Assembly: GCA_016795485.1 (NCBI GenBank)
Contig: JAEUHM010000004.1
Span: forward strand, 1-64,000
Direction of reading: 5' to 3'
DNA length: 64,000 nt
Source of the DNA: Verrucomicrobiaceae bacterium
GTDB lineage: Bacteria; Verrucomicrobiota; Verrucomicrobiia; Verrucomicrobiales; Verrucomicrobiaceae
Position numbers and translations under genes: made by a program. Positions 35,022 to 48,400 of this stretch are shown here, piece after piece. The notes under the pieces are model-generated. The model was not told the DNA's origin. It saw nothing but the letters and a program-made list of their open reading frames with translations, and did not search any database. Each line of letters opens with the position of its first letter. Position 1 is the stretch's first letter.

Positions 35022-36554
35022 TTACTTATCGAGGGCGGGAAAAGGGAATGTTATGCTCGGAGTGCGTGCGGATGCAGCTAGGGACTCCAGGCGAGATACT
35101 ACTGCAGGGTTTTCTGATGCTAGATTCTTTGTTTCTCCCGGATCGCTTTCAAGATCATACAAAGCGGTCTCTTGCTTTGCGGCGCGCTTTGATTTCCCCC
35201 CCTTGCTGGACAAGCCGTTCTTCAACAGTTTCCACTTCCCGCTGCGGATCATTTGTTGCCCCCCGTAGCTGGGAAACTCACGGTAAAGATAGTCCCGTTC
35301 TGATTGTGTTTCTCCGCGGAGGGTTGGGGCAAAACTGATGCCATCGATTCCACTGGGTGCTTTGCTGGATGCACTCACGAGATCAAGCAACGTAGGCATC
35401 CAGTCTTCAAATCCACAGACGCGATCGCTCACAGCCGGTTTGATGTGGCCTTTCCATCTCACGATTCCTGGCACGCGGAAACCGCCTTCGTAAAGCGTGC
35501 CCTTTCCGTCACGAAATGGGCCGTTGGAATCAAAAAACTCGCAATCAGTACCCGCAAGGCCTTGATGCGTCCCCGTCAGGGGGCCGTTGTCGCTGGTGAA
35601 ACAGAAAATGGTGTGTTCACCTAGGCCAAGTTTGTCGATCGTGGCCATCATTTGGCCAATATCACGGTCCATACGTGTGATCATGGCCGCGTATGCTGCC
35701 TTCGGCTTGTGGTGGGGAAGATATCCCTTTCCGCCGGGGTAGGGAGGATCGTCCCATTTTCCGGTGTATTCGAGAAGGGACTCCTCAGGCACCTGAAGTG
35801 ATACATGTGGCACGGTGGTAGGCCAGTAGATGAAAAACGGCTTCTCTTTGTTCTGTGTCGCAAAGGCGATGGCTTGTTCATCGATCAAATCAGGTGCGTA
35901 ATCGTTGCCTCTGAATCGTGCATAAACCTGCGGGTTTGAAGGATCTTCATCGGATTTCAACGCGTCAGGTACCTGAAAAGGGTGGTTATTGAGCGAAACG
36001 GGGTTGGCGTCATCCCAGAGGTAGGTCGGGTAAAAGTTGTGGGCAACACCCTGGCAGTTGTAGCCATACCAGCGGTCAAATCCTTGCTTCAGCGGCTCCC
36101 CGGTGGAACCTGGACCGCCTAATCCCCACTTTCCGAATCCGCCCGTGGTAAACCCAGCCGCCTTGAATGCCTCAGCCATGGTGATTTCGTTGTCTGGAAT
36201 GGGTTCTTGCCCTTCAAACTCGGGTTTACCGATTTTGGAGAGACCTTTTGCCTTCTCCCACTGGCGGTTGTCACGGATGTGGGCATGTCCAGGATGCTTT
36301 CCGGTCATCAAAACGCATCGCGAAGGAGCGCAGACGGCATTTCCTGAGTGCATCTGCGTTAAGCGGACCCCTTCAGAGGCCATCTTATCGAGGTTTGGGG
36401 TCCTGATCTTTGTTTGCCCGTAACACCCGAGGTCTCCCCAACCCAAATCGTCAGCAATGATGAAGATGATGTTTGGCGGGCGATCGCCGGAAGCACCGAG
36501 AGTGCAATTTACCGCTAGGAGCCAACAGAATGAGAGGCAGAAGAGACGAAGCAT
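35022..36554 (-). CDS. Exported arylsulfatase-like sulfatase
   Basis: 510 residues with signal peptide (MLRLFCLSFCWLLAVNCTLGA). The formylglycine motif is CAPSR (NAVCAPSRCVLMTG), preceded by the metal-binding IIADDLGWGD; the second metal pair is in FTSDNGPLTG. This is the C-type sulfatase core of sulfatase family S1. It hydrolyses sulfate esters and needs maturation by a formylglycine-generating enzyme or anSME encoded elsewhere. It is one of two sulfatases in the window. Confidence 0.93.
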   Translation of the reverse strand: MLRLFCLSFCWLLAVNCTLGASGDRPPNIIFIIADDLGWGDLGCYGQTKIRTPNLDKMASEGVRLTQMHSGNAVCAPSRCVLMTGKHPGHAHIRDNRQWEKAKGLSKIGKPEFEGQEPIPDNEITMAEAFKAAGFTTGGFGKWGLGGPGSTGEPLKQGFDRWYGYNCQGVAHNFYPTYLWDDANPVSLNNHPFQVPDALKSDEDPSNPQVYARFRGNDYAPDLIDEQAIAFATQNKEKPFFIYWPTTVPHVSLQVPEESLLEYTGKWDDPPYPGGKGYLPHHKPKAAYAAMITRMDRDIGQMMATIDKLGLGEHTIFCFTSDNGPLTGTHQGLAGTDCEFFDSNGPFRDGKGTLYEGGFRVPGIVRWKGHIKPAVSDRVCGFEDWMPTLLDLVSASSKAPSGIDGISFAPTLRGETQSERDYLYREFPSYGGQQMIRSGKWKLLKNGLSSKGGKSKRAAKQETALYDLESDPGETKNLASENPAVVSRLESLAASARTPSITFPFPALDK

Positions 36555-36883: not shown

Positions 36884-39070
36884 ATGTCCCTCATTCACAA
36901 TCAGTTCCAACATTTCTTGATCGCCCAACAGGCGGACGGGAGACCTGTGGAGTTGATCAGGTCGGCTGATGAAATCGCCTTTTTGGCGTTCGACACCAAG
37001 ATCAAGCGGTTGGTTGAGTTGCATGTTCTCAAACGAGGTCAGGCGATGGATGCTGTGGGTCGGCGTTCGGCGTTAGACCGCATTGAGCAGGCGCAAAGTC
37101 TTAGGGGCCTCAGTTTCATGCGAGTGCTGGAGCATGGAGAAGAGAACGGGGTCGTGTACTACTCTGCCAATTTGAATGATGGCGAAAGTGTAGAAGACTA
37201 TGTTTCACGTCGTGGTGCTGTGCCTGCCGTGACAGTTTTCTGCTTGATGCACCATTTCGTTGAAGACTTGGTGGCAGCAAAACGGTGTGACCGACTCTTG
37301 TCGCTGATGCGCGTTGGAACGCCGCTCGTAACCACTCATGAAGATGCCTTTCTTCAATTGAGGATCGTTGACTATGGGTTGTCTGGCAATGAGGCAATCA
37401 ATGATGATACCCGCACCAGGCGAGTGGTGGCCGAGTGTGGTCAATTGCTCTTCGTGCTACTCACTGGGCAGCCGTATGAAGGGCAAAATCCAGACAAATA
37501 TCCTGCTCTGACATGCTTGCCTACCAATTTAAGGATGCTTTTGCGCACCGCGTTGGTCGATCCAGACAATGTCTCACCAGTGTTAGAGAAACTGATGGAC
37601 GACATCCGAGAGGCCTATGCGTCTCTTGTTCCCAGCATTCAGGTGCGAACATCGAAGAAGCATCTGATCCTCAACGAAGCATTGCATCCCAAGTCCCATG
37701 TGCAGTCCTTGTTGCTGTCTGGAGTGGATGTCGCGGAACTCCTAAAGAGCCGCTATGAGATAGCCAGCGGAGAGGATTTCGTGCGCTATCCGTTTGCGAT
37801 TCCAGCAGTGCATCTTGCAGATCGGGCACCTGTGACAGTACATCTACTTCCGCCATCGCGAATAGCTGATAAGTCGCAGTATGAGACTGTGCCGCTCCAG
37901 ATGTGGAGGTTTAATCGGGAATCTCATCCCAACATTTTGCGCTCGCTGAGCTTGTGGGAGACTCCAGACTGGACGTTCCTAACAGAGGAAAGAGAGGGCG
38001 GATTCCCTTTGAGTCGCCTTCTCGCAGAGCGTGGAGTGCTCAATCCCACCGAGGTGTCTGTGGTGCTGCGGCAGGTGTGTGCTGCCCTCGATCAGGCTCA
38101 AGAGTGCGGAGTTACTCGGGTGGATATCCATCCTTCCAACTTAGTGTTCAAGGTGGGTCGTGAAGGAACGCCGACCGGGCGTGAGTATGACCGTCTGATG
38201 CAAAAGCGCTTGGATGCGTGGCCACCTTTCTTGCTGAAGGTAAGGACCCACTCCACTATGCGTGCTCTTTATGAGCCTTTGCTTGTAGAGCCTTCGGTTT
38301 CAGGCGAGGACCAGGAGTCCTTCCGAGCGCAAAAAGATTTCAGGAACCGATCTTTCGTGGCTTTGGCGGTGTACCTTCTCACTGGAGAGCGCCAAGTGGG
38401 AAGTGTGCCCGAGTTTGGCGAGGCCGTGCCGGATACATTGGCAGCTTTCTTGAAGGAAATGCTGTTGGCTGGTCGATATGAAGGCACGACACCGGTTCCA
38501 GCCGATTTTCTGAGTCAGTTTGAGTCGCACATGGTTGCCCCAAGTTCCGAAGGGAGAGGATTCGCTGCGATCCGAGCCATGGGAGACACTCCGGTGGAGG
38601 AGTTAGAGAGCGCTGGCTCGGTATCCGACTTTGATGAGGACTGGGCCAAGGTGGAACCTGCTGCCCCAAGCTACTTGAAAGCACGCACGGCACCTCTTGG
38701 ACTTGGGGTGAAGCCTATGCCCAAAGAGAAGCCCATGGACCGTGGGTCTTTGGGGATGATTCTCTGGGGAATTGGAGCTTCGGCGTTAGCGGTCATCGCC
38801 TTTTTGACGTTCTTTGGAGGGGGATCGCCCAATCAAGGCGTCTCTACGACTACGTCGGTGCCATCACCTGTCGTTAATCCCAACCAAACCAAAGACGGCA
38901 GCGGAGGATCGCCTGCTGTTCGCACCAAAACGCCAGAGGAGATAAAGAAGGCCATAGTACCGACCCAGGTGGAACTTCAGCGCCTCAAGCAAACACAAGA
39001 CACCGTGCAAAGTGCCGTTGGGCCAAGCAGTGGGATTGGCGGTGCGCCGGTGGCAACGGCTAGGCAATGA
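36884..39070 (+). CDS. Membrane-anchored tandem pseudokinase-like protein upstream of btubA
   Basis: 728 residues, with no signal peptide and one transmembrane helix at about 622-645 (MILWGIGASALAVIAFLTFF), so the long N-terminal part should be cytoplasmic. Domain 1 (about 10-250) resembles a Ser/Thr kinase: ELHVLK at 45-50 (VAxK Lys replaced by His47), IVDYGLSG with a DYG (163-165) in place of DFG, then LLFVLLTGQPYEG; no HRD is visible. Domain 2 (about 290-550) has VTVHLLPP (His320 again for Lys), HPNILRSL at 348-353, and VDIHPSNL (Asp414, Asn419) matching the catalytic-loop DxKPxN, but no DFG. The C-terminal tail is Ser/Pro/Thr-rich. It is co-directional with, and 134 bp from, btubA. Kinase activity is unlikely; a scaffold or membrane anchor is inference. 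Confidence 0.75.
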   Translation: MSLIHNQFQHFLIAQQADGRPVELIRSADEIAFLAFDTKIKRLVELHVLKRGQAMDAVGRRSALDRIEQAQSLRGLSFMRVLEHGEENGVVYYSANLNDGESVEDYVSRRGAVPAVTVFCLMHHFVEDLVAAKRCDRLLSLMRVGTPLVTTHEDAFLQLRIVDYGLSGNEAINDDTRTRRVVAECGQLLFVLLTGQPYEGQNPDKYPALTCLPTNLRMLLRTALVDPDNVSPVLEKLMDDIREAYASLVPSIQVRTSKKHLILNEALHPKSHVQSLLLSGVDVAELLKSRYEIASGEDFVRYPFAIPAVHLADRAPVTVHLLPPSRIADKSQYETVPLQMWRFNRESHPNILRSLSLWETPDWTFLTEEREGGFPLSRLLAERGVLNPTEVSVVLRQVCAALDQAQECGVTRVDIHPSNLVFKVGREGTPTGREYDRLMQKRLDAWPPFLLKVRTHSTMRALYEPLLVEPSVSGEDQESFRAQKDFRNRSFVALAVYLLTGERQVGSVPEFGEAVPDTLAAFLKEMLLAGRYEGTTPVPADFLSQFESHMVAPSSEGRGFAAIRAMGDTPVEELESAGSVSDFDEDWAKVEPAAPSYLKARTAPLGLGVKPMPKEKPMDRGSLGMILWGIGASALAVIAFLTFFGGGSPNQGVSTTTSVPSPVVNPNQTKDGSGGSPAVRTKTPEEIKKAIVPTQVELQRLKQTQDTVQSAVGPSSGIGGAPVATARQ

Positions 39071-39097
39071 TGGATAAGCTATTGATAATTGCTGCCG

Positions 39098-39204: not shown

Positions 39205-40641
39205 ATGAAGGTCAACAATTGCATCGTGGTATCAGTCGGTCAGGCAGGCAATCAGATTGCAGCCTCATTTTGGAAAACGATCTGCCTGGAGCACGGGATT
39301 GATCCCCTAACAGGACAGACTGCAGGAGGAGCAGAACCGAAAGGCAATTGGAGTGCGTTCTTTTCGCGATTGGGCGAGTCAAGCGGCAGTAGCTACGTCC
39401 CGCGAGCTGTCATGGTGGACCTTGAGCCTTCAGTTATCGACAATGTAAAAGCTGGCTCAGGTTCTTTGTTCAACCCTGCCAACTTGATCGCTAGGTCTGA
39501 AGGCTCAGGAGGAAACTTTGCGGTAGGTTACCTTGGGGAAGGGCGGACGGTTCTCCCCGAGATCATGAATCGTCTGAACACTGAGATCGACAAGTGTGAC
39601 AACGTCGGTGGCATCATCGTTCTCCACTCGACGGGTGGTGGAACAGGCTCTGGTTTGGGCTCCCTCATCATCGAGAGCCTCAAGGAGCGCTATCCCGAGC
39701 ACCCGATTCTCTCTTGTGCGATCCTTCCGTCTCCTCAGGTCTCATCCGTTGTTACAGAGCCATACAATACCGTCTTTGCCCTGAACACACTTCGGCGGAC
39801 TGCGGATGCCTGCCTTATTTTTGATAATGAGGCGCTGTTTGAACTCGCCCATCGGAAGTGGAACATCGACAGCCCTTCGGTGGATGATCTCAACCTTCTC
39901 ATCACCGAGGCGCTAGCGGGTCTCACGGCTTCCATGCGTTTCAGCGGGTTCCTGACCGTAGAGATCAGTCTTCGTGAGATGCTTACCAATCTCGTTCCTC
40001 AGCCGTCCCTGCACTTCTTGATGCTGTCGTTTGCTCCGTTAACTCCACCAGATCGCAGTAAGTTCGAGGAGATGGGCATTGAAGAGATGATTCGCTCTCT
40101 GTTCCAGAATGAGTCCGTCTTTGCTGCGTGCCATCCAATGGAAGGACGATTCCTATCCACGGCGGTCCTTTATCGGGGAATCATGGAAGACAAGCCGCAA
40201 GCGGATGCCGCGCTAGCAGCCATGCGCGAGCAACTCCCCCTGACTTATTGGATACCAACGGCATTCAAGATCGGTTACGTGGAGCAGTCTGGCATGGCGC
40301 ACCGCAAGAGTATGGTGTTGCTCTCCAATAACACTGAAGTTGCTCGTGTTCTTGACCGGATCGCAGCCAACTTCGACAAACTTTGGCAGCGGAAGGCATT
40401 CGCCAACTGGTATCTTAACGAAGGCATGTCAGAGGAGCAGATCAATGCCTTGCGTGCTTCAGCTCAAGAGCTCATCCAAAGTTACCAAGTGGCAGAGGAA
40501 AGTGGTGCCAAGGCAAAGGTTCAGGATGACCCAAGTGTGGCAGCGCGGGCGGGCACTGGATTGCCTCCTGCGGCTGCATCTGATGAGCCGAAGACAGGTT
40601 CACTAAGCCTCCGTGATCTCGTCGACCGCCGCAAAGCCTAA
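39205..40641 (+). CDS. btubA: Bacterial tubulin A
   Basis: 478 residues, a true tubulin rather than FtsZ. The N terminus carries VSVGQAGNQIAASFW (tubulin GQxGNQI, T1 loop), the tubulin signature STGGGTGSGLGSL is at residues 142-153 (GTP phosphate-binding T4 loop), and the C-terminal helices include NWYLNEGMSEEQI, as in eukaryotic tubulins. BtubA pairs with BtubB into heterodimers that polymerise into bacterial microtubules, known from Prosthecobacter. The C-terminal tail is short (about 40 residues after the core, RDLVDRRKA), not an acidic eukaryotic tail. 35 bp separate it from btubB. Confidence 0.97.
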   Translation: MKVNNCIVVSVGQAGNQIAASFWKTICLEHGIDPLTGQTAGGAEPKGNWSAFFSRLGESSGSSYVPRAVMVDLEPSVIDNVKAGSGSLFNPANLIARSEGSGGNFAVGYLGEGRTVLPEIMNRLNTEIDKCDNVGGIIVLHSTGGGTGSGLGSLIIESLKERYPEHPILSCAILPSPQVSSVVTEPYNTVFALNTLRRTADACLIFDNEALFELAHRKWNIDSPSVDDLNLLITEALAGLTASMRFSGFLTVEISLREMLTNLVPQPSLHFLMLSFAPLTPPDRSKFEEMGIEEMIRSLFQNESVFAACHPMEGRFLSTAVLYRGIMEDKPQADAALAAMREQLPLTYWIPTAFKIGYVEQSGMAHRKSMVLLSNNTEVARVLDRIAANFDKLWQRKAFANWYLNEGMSEEQINALRASAQELIQSYQVAEESGAKAKVQDDPSVAARAGTGLPPAAASDEPKTGSLSLRDLVDRRKA

Positions 40642-40676
40642 CCCGCCCGTATCCCATCCCTCACCCTTTTTGACTC

Positions 40677-41951
40677 ATGAGAGAAATCGTCAGCATTCAC
40701 GTCGGCCAGTGCGGAAACCAAATTGCAGACCGTTATTGGCGGCTGATCTTGCGAGAGCATGGTTTGGATGACAGCGGAGTGCCCAAGCAGGGCTCAAATG
40801 TCGCAAGCAATGCCAATATGGAAGTCTTCTTCACGAAGATTCGGGAAGGAAAGTACACTCCGCGAGCAGTCCTTGTGGACCTAGAGCCTGGCGTGATTGC
40901 CAGGATTGAGAAAGGCGAGATGTCCCAGCTTTTCGATGAAGGCTCCATCATTCGCAAGATCCCTGGTGCAGCCAATAACTGGGCACGTGGCTATCACGTG
41001 GAAGGTGAACGTGTGATCGACCAGATCATGAACGTCATTGATGCTGCCGTTGAGAAGACCAAGGCGCTTCAGGGCTTTCTGCTGACTCATTCAATCGGTG
41101 GCGGTTCCGGTTCTGGCCTTGGTTCGCTCATTCTTGAGCGTCTTCGTCAGGCCTATCCCAAAAAGAAGATCTTCACGTTTTCGGTGGCACCGTCACCTGT
41201 CATCTCTGATGCAGCTGTGGAGCCGTACAATGCCATTTTGACGCTTCAGCGAATCAAAGACAATGCTGACGCGGCTGTCATCTTGGATAACGAGGCGCTG
41301 TTCCGTATTGCCAAGAGCAAGCTGCATCGCGCACCCAACTACATGGACTTGAACCACATCGTGGGCTTGATCATGTCCAGCGTCACGGCGTCTCTGCGTT
41401 TTCCGGGCAAGCTTAACACGGATCTGGGCGAGTTTGTTACCAATCTCGTTCCGTTCCCAGGCAATCACTTTCTGACCGCGTCTTTTGCGCCTATGCGTGC
41501 CGCAGGGGCCGAGGGACAAGTGCGGATGCCATTCCCAGATCTGGCTCGTGAGACTTTTGCCCAAGACAATTTCACGGCTGCTATCGACTGGCAGAATGGC
41601 GCTTACCTTTCTGCTTGTGCGTTGTTCCGTGGTGATGTGAAAGCCAAAGAAGTAGAAGAGAACATGGCGGCTATCCGCAAGAGCCTCAACTTCGTGACTT
41701 ACATTCCAACCGGGGTGAAGATCGGTGTGGCTGAGACTGCCCCAGAAGGCTTTGCATCGTCAGGGCTTGCCTTGGTCAATCACACAGGCATTGCTGCTGT
41801 CTTTGAGCGACTGATTAGCAACTTCAACATCATGTTCGACAACCACGCCTACACCCACTGGTATGAGAGTGCCGGAGTATCGCGCGACATGATGGCGGAA
41901 GCTCGTGATTGCGTTACGGAACTCGCCAAGAGCTACCGGGACGCGACCTAG
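40677..41951 (+). CDS. btubB: Bacterial tubulin B
   Basis: 424 residues. It opens MREIVSIHVGQCGNQIADRYW, strikingly like eukaryotic beta-tubulin (MREIVxIQxGQCGNQIG). The signature is GGGSGSGLGS at 141-150 (Ser in place of the usual Thr). The T7-loop region reads LNTDLGEFVTNLVP, so the alpha-tubulin-like acidic residue is retained. The C terminus ends shortly after the HWYESAG segment, with no acidic tail. BtubB forms the heterodimer and filament with BtubA. No Shine-Dalgarno is seen; translation may rely on the btubA transcript. Confidence 0.97.
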   Translation: MREIVSIHVGQCGNQIADRYWRLILREHGLDDSGVPKQGSNVASNANMEVFFTKIREGKYTPRAVLVDLEPGVIARIEKGEMSQLFDEGSIIRKIPGAANNWARGYHVEGERVIDQIMNVIDAAVEKTKALQGFLLTHSIGGGSGSGLGSLILERLRQAYPKKKIFTFSVAPSPVISDAAVEPYNAILTLQRIKDNADAAVILDNEALFRIAKSKLHRAPNYMDLNHIVGLIMSSVTASLRFPGKLNTDLGEFVTNLVPFPGNHFLTASFAPMRAAGAEGQVRMPFPDLARETFAQDNFTAAIDWQNGAYLSACALFRGDVKAKEVEENMAAIRKSLNFVTYIPTGVKIGVAETAPEGFASSGLALVNHTGIAAVFERLISNFNIMFDNHAYTHWYESAGVSRDMMAEARDCVTELAKSYRDAT

Positions 41952-41976
41952 TGCATTCTGGATAAAGTCACCAAGA

Positions 41977-42747
41977 ATGGACCAGACTCTCGACAAGCAG
42001 CTTGCCTCCGCTACCCGTAGCGTGGAGGAGGCACGACGGTTGGCGTATCGCGATCCATCCCGAGTTGGTGATCTTGTGGAGCAGATTTCGGTGCTTGCAG
42101 ACCTTCGTCAGAAGGAAGGAGATTTCCGCAAGGCTGAGTCGCTGTATCGGGAGGCGCTATTTAGAGTCCAAGACCTTAAAAAGCCTGACTCGAGCCTGAC
42201 GGCAGGCATCTACTCACTGCTGGCGTACCTCTACGATCGCTGGGGTAAGATGGACTTGGCCGCTCAATACTATGAAAAGGCGTTGAAGCTCTCTGAGTCC
42301 GATGATGTTACCGACCCTGACAAGTCGGCGACCATCAAAAACAATTTGGCGATGATCTTCAAAAACTTGAAGAACACTCAGAAAGCGGAGCAGTATTATC
42401 ATGAAGCGCTTGAGGGCTTCACCAAGTTGTATGGCGAAAACCACAGCAAAGTGGCAGCTGTGTACAACAATCTTGGAGTGCTCTACTACGCCGGAATGGA
42501 TATCGAGCGAGCCCAGAAGGTCCATGAACGTGCGCTGGAGATCAGGCAGAATCTCACATCGGGAGAGGTTGATCCTGGAGACTTGAGTCAGACGTACATT
42601 AACCTTGGAGCAGTTTACAAAGCCCTGGGCAACTTCCAGCAAGCTGAAGAGTGTGTAACCAAGGCCAAGCGTCTGCGTGCAGAGCAGAGTGGCTACGTGC
42701 CAGCCCCCCGTAGATCTGCTAGTTTGCTTCAAGACAAGACAGCCTAA
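41977..42747 (+). CDS. bklc: Bacterial kinesin light chain-like TPR protein
   Basis: 256 residues from ATG 41977, 25 bp after btubB; an upstream ATG at 41905 would overlap btubB and is not preferred. At least four tetratricopeptide repeats of the kinesin-light-chain type are visible: GDFRKAESLYREALFRV, GKMDLAAQYYEKALKL, KNTQKAEQYYHEALEGF, DIERAQKVHERALEI and NFQQAEECVTKAKRL. The TPR array suggests a protein-binding partner of the tubulin filaments; Bklc is established as the third gene of Prosthecobacter tubulin operons. No motor domain is present, so no kinesin heavy-chain function is implied. Confidence 0.95.
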   Translation: MDQTLDKQLASATRSVEEARRLAYRDPSRVGDLVEQISVLADLRQKEGDFRKAESLYREALFRVQDLKKPDSSLTAGIYSLLAYLYDRWGKMDLAAQYYEKALKLSESDDVTDPDKSATIKNNLAMIFKNLKNTQKAEQYYHEALEGFTKLYGENHSKVAAVYNNLGVLYYAGMDIERAQKVHERALEIRQNLTSGEVDPGDLSQTYINLGAVYKALGNFQQAEECVTKAKRLRAEQSGYVPAPRRSASLLQDKTA

Positions 42748-42785
42748 CGATTGCTAGTCTTGGGCGGCTCGCTTTTTGAGCGTTT

Positions 42786-46906: not shown

Positions 46907-48400
46907 TCAGCGGATCTTTTTGTCTGGAAGTTCAGACTTGATGCCTTCGTCGAGTGGCATCTTATCGTTTTCAGGTGTGAGTCCGGTGGCCTTCATGGCC
47001 GCGAGCCACTCCTGATGAAGCTTGGCGATGTTCTCCTTCTGTGCCGGCTCGTTTATCAGGTTGCGAGTTTCGCCAGGGTCAGACTCTAGGTCGTAGAGCT
47101 CGGACATGTGTCTGGCTGGAGTGTTATCTCCGTGTGGATAATGAATGTATTTCCACTTCTCGGTGCGTAGAGCGCGCACGTTGGGCGTGTAAGGGAACTG
47201 CTTTTCGTAGTTGTAATGGTAATGCCAAGACTTTCGCCACTCATTGTCACTCCCGGTCTCAACAAGCTTTCTCCAACTGCGACCGTGAATGGAAGGAATG
47301 GGGTCAGCACCACAAACATCGAGCAAGCTGGGCGTCACATCCACCGTCAGCACTTGATTTTGGATCACTTTGCCGCTGGCTGAACCTGGTGTCCGGACGA
47401 TGATTGGAATACGAATGCTTGCCTCGTGTGCGGTACGCTTGTCCACCATGCCGTGTTCGCCTTCTAGCAATCCATTGTCACCCATGAAGACTACGATCGT
47501 GTTGTCCCACTGCCCGGTTTCTTCCAACCAGGAGCGCAAGCGGCCAAGAGAATCGTCCACACTCAGCACAGTGCCCCAATAGGCATGCACCATGTTCTCG
47601 AAGTCCTTCACGGCTTCTGGGCGATCATCCGGAAATTTCTTTCGCCACTCAAACAAGGGACCATAGATGCCGTGCCAGGTATAGAGGCGCTCTTTGATCC
47701 ACTTTGGCTTATCGTCCAGCGCGAATGCGGTGGCAGGGTAGGGGACTCGCACACTGTCAAACGCGTGCTCATATTTCGGTTCAGGGAAATAGAAGGAATG
47801 CGGCGCTTTTTGCCCGATCGTCATGCACCAAGGACTCTCTTTGTCCTGCTTCTTCAGCCAGTCGAGCGCCAAGTCGGTCACAACTGTCGTGTAGTAGCCT
47901 TTGATCAACTTTGATCCGCTGCCATGGATGTTGAACTCGGTATCAAAGTATTGTCCTTGGCCTTTGTGAGTGACGAAATGATCAAATCCAGGTCTGGGAG
48001 CATCATTGTTCTCTCCCATATGCCACTTTCCGATGTAAGCCGTCTTGTAACCAGCTTTTTGGAGTTGCTTGGGCAGCGTTGGTAGTTGATCTGGAAGCTC
48101 AGTGAAGTTGTTTGTGACCGTATGTTGATGAGCGTAGATGCCCGTCAAGATCGAGGCACGGCTGGGTGAGCAGAGGGAGGTAGTGCAGAACGCATTGGCA
48201 AAACGCACACCCTCGGAAGCTAGTTTATCGATCTGGGGAGTCTTGACGTGCTTGGAGCCGTAGCAACCCAGTGCATCTGGACGGAGATCGTCACAGAGAA
48301 TGAATAACACATTGGGTTTGCTGGCGGCATTCGCCGTGAAGGTGACGCCAAAAACCGCAGCAACGAGAAGCGCTGCCTTTTGGATAAAGCCTCTTGTCAT
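46907..48400 (-). CDS. Exported sulfatase (iduronate-2-sulfatase/N-sulfatase-like)
   Basis: 497 residues with signal peptide ([25 protein letters not shown]). The formylglycine motif is CSPSR ([15 protein letters not shown]), with metal-binding [13 protein letters not shown] and [14 protein letters not shown]; the C-terminal region matches the sulfatase DUF4976 tail ([13 protein letters not shown]). It is distinct from the 35022 sulfatase in substrate-region sequence. Twelve bp after the ThuA-like gene, so probably co-transcribed with it. Confidence 0.93.

What the first reader, a model, noticed from the sequence alone, without database searches (positions are those of the whole stretch)
39205..42747. 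Complete bacterial tubulin operon btubA-btubB-bklc
Two genuine tubulins (GGGTGSG and GGGSGSG signatures; MREIVxIxxGQCGNQI start in BtubB) and a TPR protein lie in one strand with 35- and 25-bp gaps. Bacterial tubulins are known essentially from Prosthecobacter, so this both identifies the organism and is the main rare system in the window.
Basis: partly seen in the sequence, partly recalled or inferred. Interest (0 to 1): 0.9.

Follow-up and report, generated by a model that had tools for sequence, protein, structure and literature searches.

The report
Bacterial tubulin (mini-microtubule) operon
The window holds an intact copy of the already known bacterial tubulin operon (two tubulins plus a kinesin-light-chain-like protein) in a genome that stands alone in its genus, and comparison with relatives adds two untested leads: a membrane pseudokinase gene that usually sits next to the operon, and a third tubulin in a related family.

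Summary
Confirmed: 39205-42747 encodes BtubA (478 aa), BtubB (424 aa) and Bklc (256 aa), with gaps of 35 and 25 bp. BtubA and BtubB are 84% and 83% identical to the crystallised Prosthecobacter proteins (2BTO/2BTQ); Bklc matches 5O01/5O09 over its full length. GTP-binding loops are conserved, the T7 glutamate is present in both tubulins, and FtsZ is encoded elsewhere in the genome. A tree groups BtubA with Asgard AtubA and BtubB with AtubB, as published in 2026.

The operon is a known kind. The inference that it identifies Prosthecobacter is not supported: btub matches occur in 43 of 68 held genomes of this family (one only fragments), in 7 of 11 genera, and in three genomes of another family of the order. 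The window's genome is the only one held of its genus code.

Two additions are not described in the papers I could search. (1) A tandem-pseudokinase/transmembrane gene (36884-39070) lies directly upstream of btubA in 25 of 39 genomes that have both; co-occurrence controlled for descent is suggestive, not significant. (2) Two genomes of the other family carry a third, divergent tubulin and a pseudokinase relative in the same cluster. An apparent BtubA-BtubB fusion was an assembly gap.

The parts
39205..40641 (+). btubA, bacterial tubulin A (478 aa); GGAG Shine-Dalgarno-like sequence just upstream
   Evidence: 84% identical to PDB 2bto; Pfam Tubulin + Tubulin_C; T1-T7 loops as in the crystallised protein; clade with AtubA
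40677..41951 (+). btubB, bacterial tubulin B (424 aa)
   Evidence: 83% identical to PDB 2btq; Pfam Tubulin + Tubulin_C; clade with AtubB
41977..42747 (+). bklc, TPR protein 'bacterial kinesin light chain' (256 aa). The mechanical ORF opens earlier (41905, GTG), but the ATG at 41977 matches the N-terminus of the solved protein
   Evidence: PDB 5o01 E=1.9e-112 over residues 1-255, and the Bklc chain of entry 5o09; TPR_12 2.8e-35
36884..39070 (+). candidate fourth component (role inferred only): two degenerate protein-kinase-like domains, one transmembrane helix (residues about 623-643), then a low-complexity tail with a conserved end (728 aa)
   Evidence: directly upstream of btubA in six genus codes; weak Pfam Pkinase in all 8 aligned members; Foldseek best hits are protein kinases, PknB first; kinase motifs degenerate; hydropathy peak; dN/dS 0.05-0.15 in related pairs
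42767..42782 (+). terminator-like hairpin with T run just after bklc, before a tRNA-Met/tRNA-Pro pair on the other strand
   Evidence: consensus scan only; 9 such sites found against 6.3 expected in the region; tRNAs

Best explanation
This is an intact bacterial tubulin operon. BtubA and BtubB most likely form a heterodimer that polymerises with GTP into a mini-microtubule of four or five protofilaments, and Bklc binds the assembled filament and links it to membrane. These steps were shown experimentally for Prosthecobacter proteins; here they are inferred from high identity and conserved GTPase loops. The filament works beside FtsZ, not instead of it. The upstream transmembrane pseudokinase (36884-39070) is a possible accessory, for example a membrane-side receptor or regulator; that role is inference only and is weighed separately below.
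For: Full-length matches to the crystallised and cryo-EM proteins. GTP-binding loops as in 2bto/2btq and the T7 glutamate present in both subunits. dN/dS about 0.015-0.065 for btubA, btubB and bklc in related pairs. Order btubA-btubB-bklc kept in the family loci that are not truncated. Separate FtsZ-family gene at G000:C11. Filament and Bklc-membrane biochemistry: PMC5372463; bacterial microtubules: PMC3232192.
Against: Polymerisation, expression and localisation were not tested for this organism. Presence of btub changes at least 13 times on the ffh tree and the tubulins are broken in G042, so the system is dispensable in some lineages and its role in the cell is unknown.
Confidence: 0.93

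Rival explanations
1. The upstream pseudokinase gene is only a neighbour: an unrelated membrane signalling gene that stayed beside the operon by shared descent.
For: Related genes occur in genomes without btub, both in the family (G014, G028, G042, G054) and in other families of the order. It lies on a different contig or far from btub in about a dozen genomes. A conserved promoter-like block lies between the two genes in many relatives, so they may be separate transcripts. Co-occurrence controlled for descent is not significant (median p 0.125). Other neighbours (clusters C3, C8) are also partly conserved.
Against: Uncorrected co-occurrence is strong (39 both, 3 btub only, 5 pseudokinase only, 21 neither; Fisher 5e-10), and independent pairs go the same way 4.2 times against 0.2 the other way. 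Genomes in which it is unlinked still keep it. A diverged relative sits directly before btubA in another family.
Confidence: 0.6
2. The tubulins came from eukaryotes, and their likeness to Asgard tubulins is superficial.
For: The older literature favoured transfer from eukaryotes (abstract of PMC3349469). My tree has few reference sequences and long branches.
Against: BtubA (with the third paralogue) groups with AtubA at 99/98 and BtubB with AtubB of Loki- and Heimdallarchaea at 98/92. The best non-Btub PDB scores are AtubA for BtubA and AtubB for BtubB, above eukaryotic tubulins. The same result is published with 477 sequences (PMC13394414).
Confidence: 0.1
3. BtubA/BtubB replace FtsZ as the cell-division tubulin in this organism.
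For: They are tubulin-superfamily GTPases in a bacterium.
Against: A separate FtsZ-family gene is in the same genome, and many related genomes have no btub.
Confidence: 0.02

Closest known systems
Prosthecobacter btubA-btubB-bklc operon (PDB 2bto, 2btq, 5o09, 5o01)
   Same: Same three genes, order, lengths, domains and GTPase loops; BtubA 84% and BtubB 83% identical, Bklc matched over its full length
   Different: Genome coded as a genus of its own; bounded downstream by tRNA-Met, tRNA-Pro, a KH-domain gene, rpsP and ffh; two residues fewer in BtubB than 2btq (after YIPT/YMPA)
Asgard archaeal AtubA/AtubB tubulins (PDB 9f6t, 9hxc, 24rt, 9tqj)
   Same: Tandem tubulin pair; BtubA groups with AtubA and BtubB with AtubB
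   Different: About 42-45% identity; Loki AtubA has Lys at the T7 position where both Btubs have Glu; no Bklc reported in the passages I read
Bacterial Ser/Thr kinases of the PknB/PknE/PknI type and the kinase-homology domain of Rv3910 (3uqc), for the upstream gene
   Same: Kinase-like fold by Foldseek; one transmembrane helix after the kinase-like part
   Different: Two tandem degenerate kinase-like domains; no domain has all catalytic motifs; the window protein is below Pfam's cut-off

Membership tests
Bacterial tubulin BtubA/BtubB | Two full-length tubulins with GTPase and C-terminal domains | tested here: met
   Pfam PF00091 + PF03953 in both
Bacterial tubulin BtubA/BtubB | Phylogenetic placement with known BtubA and BtubB | tested here: met
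   BtubB clade 100/99; BtubA clade 78/84, or 99/96 with the third paralogue
Bacterial tubulin BtubA/BtubB | Outside FtsZ/TubZ | tested here: met
   Best matches are tubulins: 800-900 bits to Btub chains and 300-400 to Asgard and eukaryotic tubulins. FtsZ/TubZ were not included in the tree itself
Bacterial tubulin BtubA/BtubB | GTP-binding loops T1-T6 and T7 catalytic acid | tested here: met
   Loop-by-loop comparison with 2bto/2btq, alpha and beta tubulin
Bacterial tubulin BtubA/BtubB | GTP-dependent heterodimer polymerisation into mini-microtubules | not testable with these tools
   Known for Prosthecobacter proteins (PMC2746283, PMC3232192, PMC5372463); inferred here by homology
btub operon | bklc (TPR, kinesin-light-chain-like) directly downstream on the same strand | tested here: met
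   41977-42747, PDB 5o01 E=1.9e-112
btub operon | Co-transcription of the three genes | not testable with these tools
   Reported for Prosthecobacter in PMC5372463; here only gaps of 35 and 25 bp
Genus Prosthecobacter | Presence of btub diagnoses the genus | tested here: not met
   btub in 7 of 11 genus codes of the family and in family f3; window genome alone in g1. The organism could not be formally named here
Active Ser/Thr protein kinase (upstream gene 36884-39070) | VAIK Lys, catalytic-loop Asp and DFG Asp in one domain | tested here: not met
   Alignment A1: second domain keeps D and N of the catalytic loop (VD[IL]HPSN) but has no DFG and has VTVH where VAIK would be; first domain keeps only a DYG

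The most novel reading that the evidence does not exclude
The ancestral verrucomicrobial microtubule cluster is larger than the known three genes. It includes a membrane-spanning tandem pseudokinase that works with the Btub filament (in the window, 36884-39070) and, in another family of the order, a third tubulin with a degenerate T7 loop that could act as a non-hydrolysing cap or nucleator.
Probability: 0.3. Interest if true: 0.65.

Novelty: new member of a known kind. Interest (0 to 1): 0.38.

Why it matters
The operon itself is well studied. This copy extends it to another genus, and the comparison shows a wide, patchy distribution in the order rather than a Prosthecobacter peculiarity. The role of bacterial microtubules in the cell is still unknown; the pseudokinase neighbour and the third tubulin give concrete genes to test for membrane attachment, regulation or nucleation.

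Tried and rejected
(1) BtubA-BtubB fusion in L037 (one 912-aa ORF): rejected, the join crosses a run of about 100 N. (2) Tubulins in G350 (family f2): rejected as eukaryotic contamination; an alpha-tubulin with a GEEEGEEY end and best PDB match to eukaryotic alpha-tubulin, on a contig with an ion-channel-like ORF. (3) The name 'BtubC' for the third tubulin: dropped, because a paper already uses btubC for the bklc gene (PMC9871819). (4) A promoter before btubA in the window: the only consensus-like site (39061-39089) is not above chance. (5) A class-wide sample found btub only in the window's own family. (7) The founding operon paper (PMC2175320) is not held, so its account of flanking genes could not be read.

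Full report
Observation. BtubA matches PDB 2bto over its full length (E 5.6e-271, 84% identity), BtubB matches 2btq (2e-239, 83%), and Bklc matches 5o01 (1.9e-112) and the Bklc chain of 5o09. Both tubulins carry Pfam Tubulin and Tubulin_C.

The GTP-binding loops agree with the crystallised proteins, with one conservative change in T3 of BtubA and a few in T5. The T7 glutamate (alpha-tubulin E254 position) is present in both BtubA and BtubB, whereas beta-tubulin and Loki AtubA have lysine there. In a careful tree of 30 sequences, BtubB (100/99) groups with AtubB of Loki- and Heimdallarchaea (98/92), and BtubA groups with AtubA (99/98). This agrees with a 2026 paper that infers an Asgard origin of bacterial tubulins (PMC13394414). 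The tree has long branches and few references, so it supports that placement without proving it. FtsZ and TubZ were not in the tree; the match scores alone exclude them. A separate FtsZ-family gene is in the same genome (G000:C11).

How it works. By homology, BtubA/BtubB heterodimers polymerise with GTP into mini-microtubules of four or five protofilaments (PMC3232192; PMC13394414 and references there), and Bklc binds polymerised Btub and lipid vesicles (PMC5372463). Nothing here tests this for the window's proteins; it rests on identity and conserved catalytic residues. The genes are under strong purifying selection in related pairs (dN/dS mostly 0.015-0.04 for btubA/btubB, up to 0.065 for bklc).

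Distribution. A scan of genome contigs gave 34 loci, among them records named Prosthecobacter, Brevifollis gellanilyticus and Phragmitibacter. In the window's family, 43 of 68 held genomes match, in 7 of 11 genus codes; one of these (G042) has only tubulin fragments with stops, beside a bklc that looks intact. In the order sample, three genomes of family f3 match (G100, G178, G204), and a fourth hit (G350) is eukaryotic contamination. A class-wide sample gave nothing outside the family. The window's genome is the only one held of genus code g1. By contig coordinates, the locus L014 named Prosthecobacter sp. is G030 and Brevifollis gellanilyticus is G018, both in g8. Carrying btub therefore does not make the organism Prosthecobacter; its name could not be determined here. 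On an ffh tree, presence of btub needs at least 13 changes, so it has been lost or gained often. G013 carries two operons on one contig, reminiscent of the two operons reported for P. debontii (PMC3232192).

Upstream gene. In the window, 36884-39070 encodes 728 aa and ends 134 bp before btubA. Homologues (42-54% identity) are found just upstream of btubA in 19 fetched loci and, by coordinates, in 25 of 39 genomes that have both genes, in six genus codes (my count). All eight aligned members match Pfam Pkinase weakly, the window's own below the cut-off. The AlphaFold model is of modest confidence (mean pLDDT 66 from 8 sequences), and its best Foldseek hits are protein kinases, PknB first. Motifs are degenerate: the second domain keeps the catalytic-loop D and N (VD[IL]HPSN) but has no DFG and has VTVH where VAIK would be; the first keeps only a DYG. 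A hydrophobic helix at 623-643 is followed by a low-complexity tail with a conserved end. It is probably a membrane-anchored tandem pseudokinase. dN/dS is 0.05-0.15.

Is that gene part of the system? For: co-occurrence is 39 both, 3 btub only, 5 pseudokinase only, 21 neither (Fisher 5e-10), and genomes in which it is unlinked keep it. Against: with control for descent, only 7 independent pairs are available (4.2 same, 0.2 opposite, median p 0.125); homologues exist without btub across the order; and in many relatives a conserved promoter-like block lies between the genes. Absence calls also depend on incomplete genomes. I regard it as a candidate only.

Third tubulin. In f3 genomes G178 (L060, L059) and G100 (L061) the cluster reads: helix-turn-helix gene, third tubulin, pseudokinase relative, btubA, btubB, bklc. 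In G178 btubA and btubB are at the ends of two different contigs, so their adjacency is inferred. In G100 btubA and the start of btubB are missing and the pseudokinase ORF is broken, by deletion or assembly error. The third tubulin is 71% identical between the two genomes and closest to BtubA (about 33%). It keeps the T4 loop GGGSGSG and has changed T2, T6 and T7 loops without the T7 glutamate. The window's genome has only BtubA, BtubB and FtsZ by Pfam Tubulin, and none of the other 73 f3 genomes held has the third tubulin. A non-hydrolysing accessory tubulin is a reasonable guess and is untested.

Verdict. The finding is real and correctly named; it is a new member of a known kind, and the taxonomic inference is too strong. 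The comparative leads are the more interesting part and carry modest probability. I found no mention of them in the papers I could search, which leave out most subscription journals and the paper that first described the operons.

Noticed in passing
L060:3476-4768 (-) and L061:7538-8806 (-): Third tubulin paralogue in the btub cluster of two family-f3 genomes, 71% identical to each other and about 33% to BtubA, with a changed T7 loop lacking the glutamate.
   Followed up: partly
L061:4884-7020: In G100 the cluster lacks btubA and roughly the first 97 residues of BtubB; the rest of BtubB is joined in frame to pseudokinase sequence. Deletion or assembly error.
   Followed up: partly
L063:5406-6600 and L064: G042 has tubulin fragments with stops beside an apparently intact bklc and, on another contig, a pseudokinase gene without stops: probably a recent decay of the tubulins.
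   Followed up: partly
L057, L058 (G350): A held genome of the same order contains contigs that look eukaryotic (alpha-tubulin, ion-channel-like and splicing-factor-like ORFs): contamination.
   Followed up: yes
L065 and G013:C9:235506: Two btub operons on one contig of G013; their BtubB proteins are 79% and 83% identical to the window's.
   Followed up: no
upstream of btubA in L008, L014, L016-L019, L023: A conserved block within 280 bp before btubA (TTGGAC, 17 bases, GTAAAA in many relatives) looks like a promoter; the window's own sequence does not clearly keep it.
   Followed up: partly
window 35022-36554 (-) and 46907-48400 (-): Sulfatase genes lie on both sides of the operon region; a homologue of the first is also beside the cluster in L004 and L006 (66% identity).
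   Followed up: no
L026, L027, L034, L035, L036 upstream of btubA: In this group of relatives a different gene (cluster C13, on the other strand) lies upstream of btubA in place of the pseudokinase gene.
   Followed up: no
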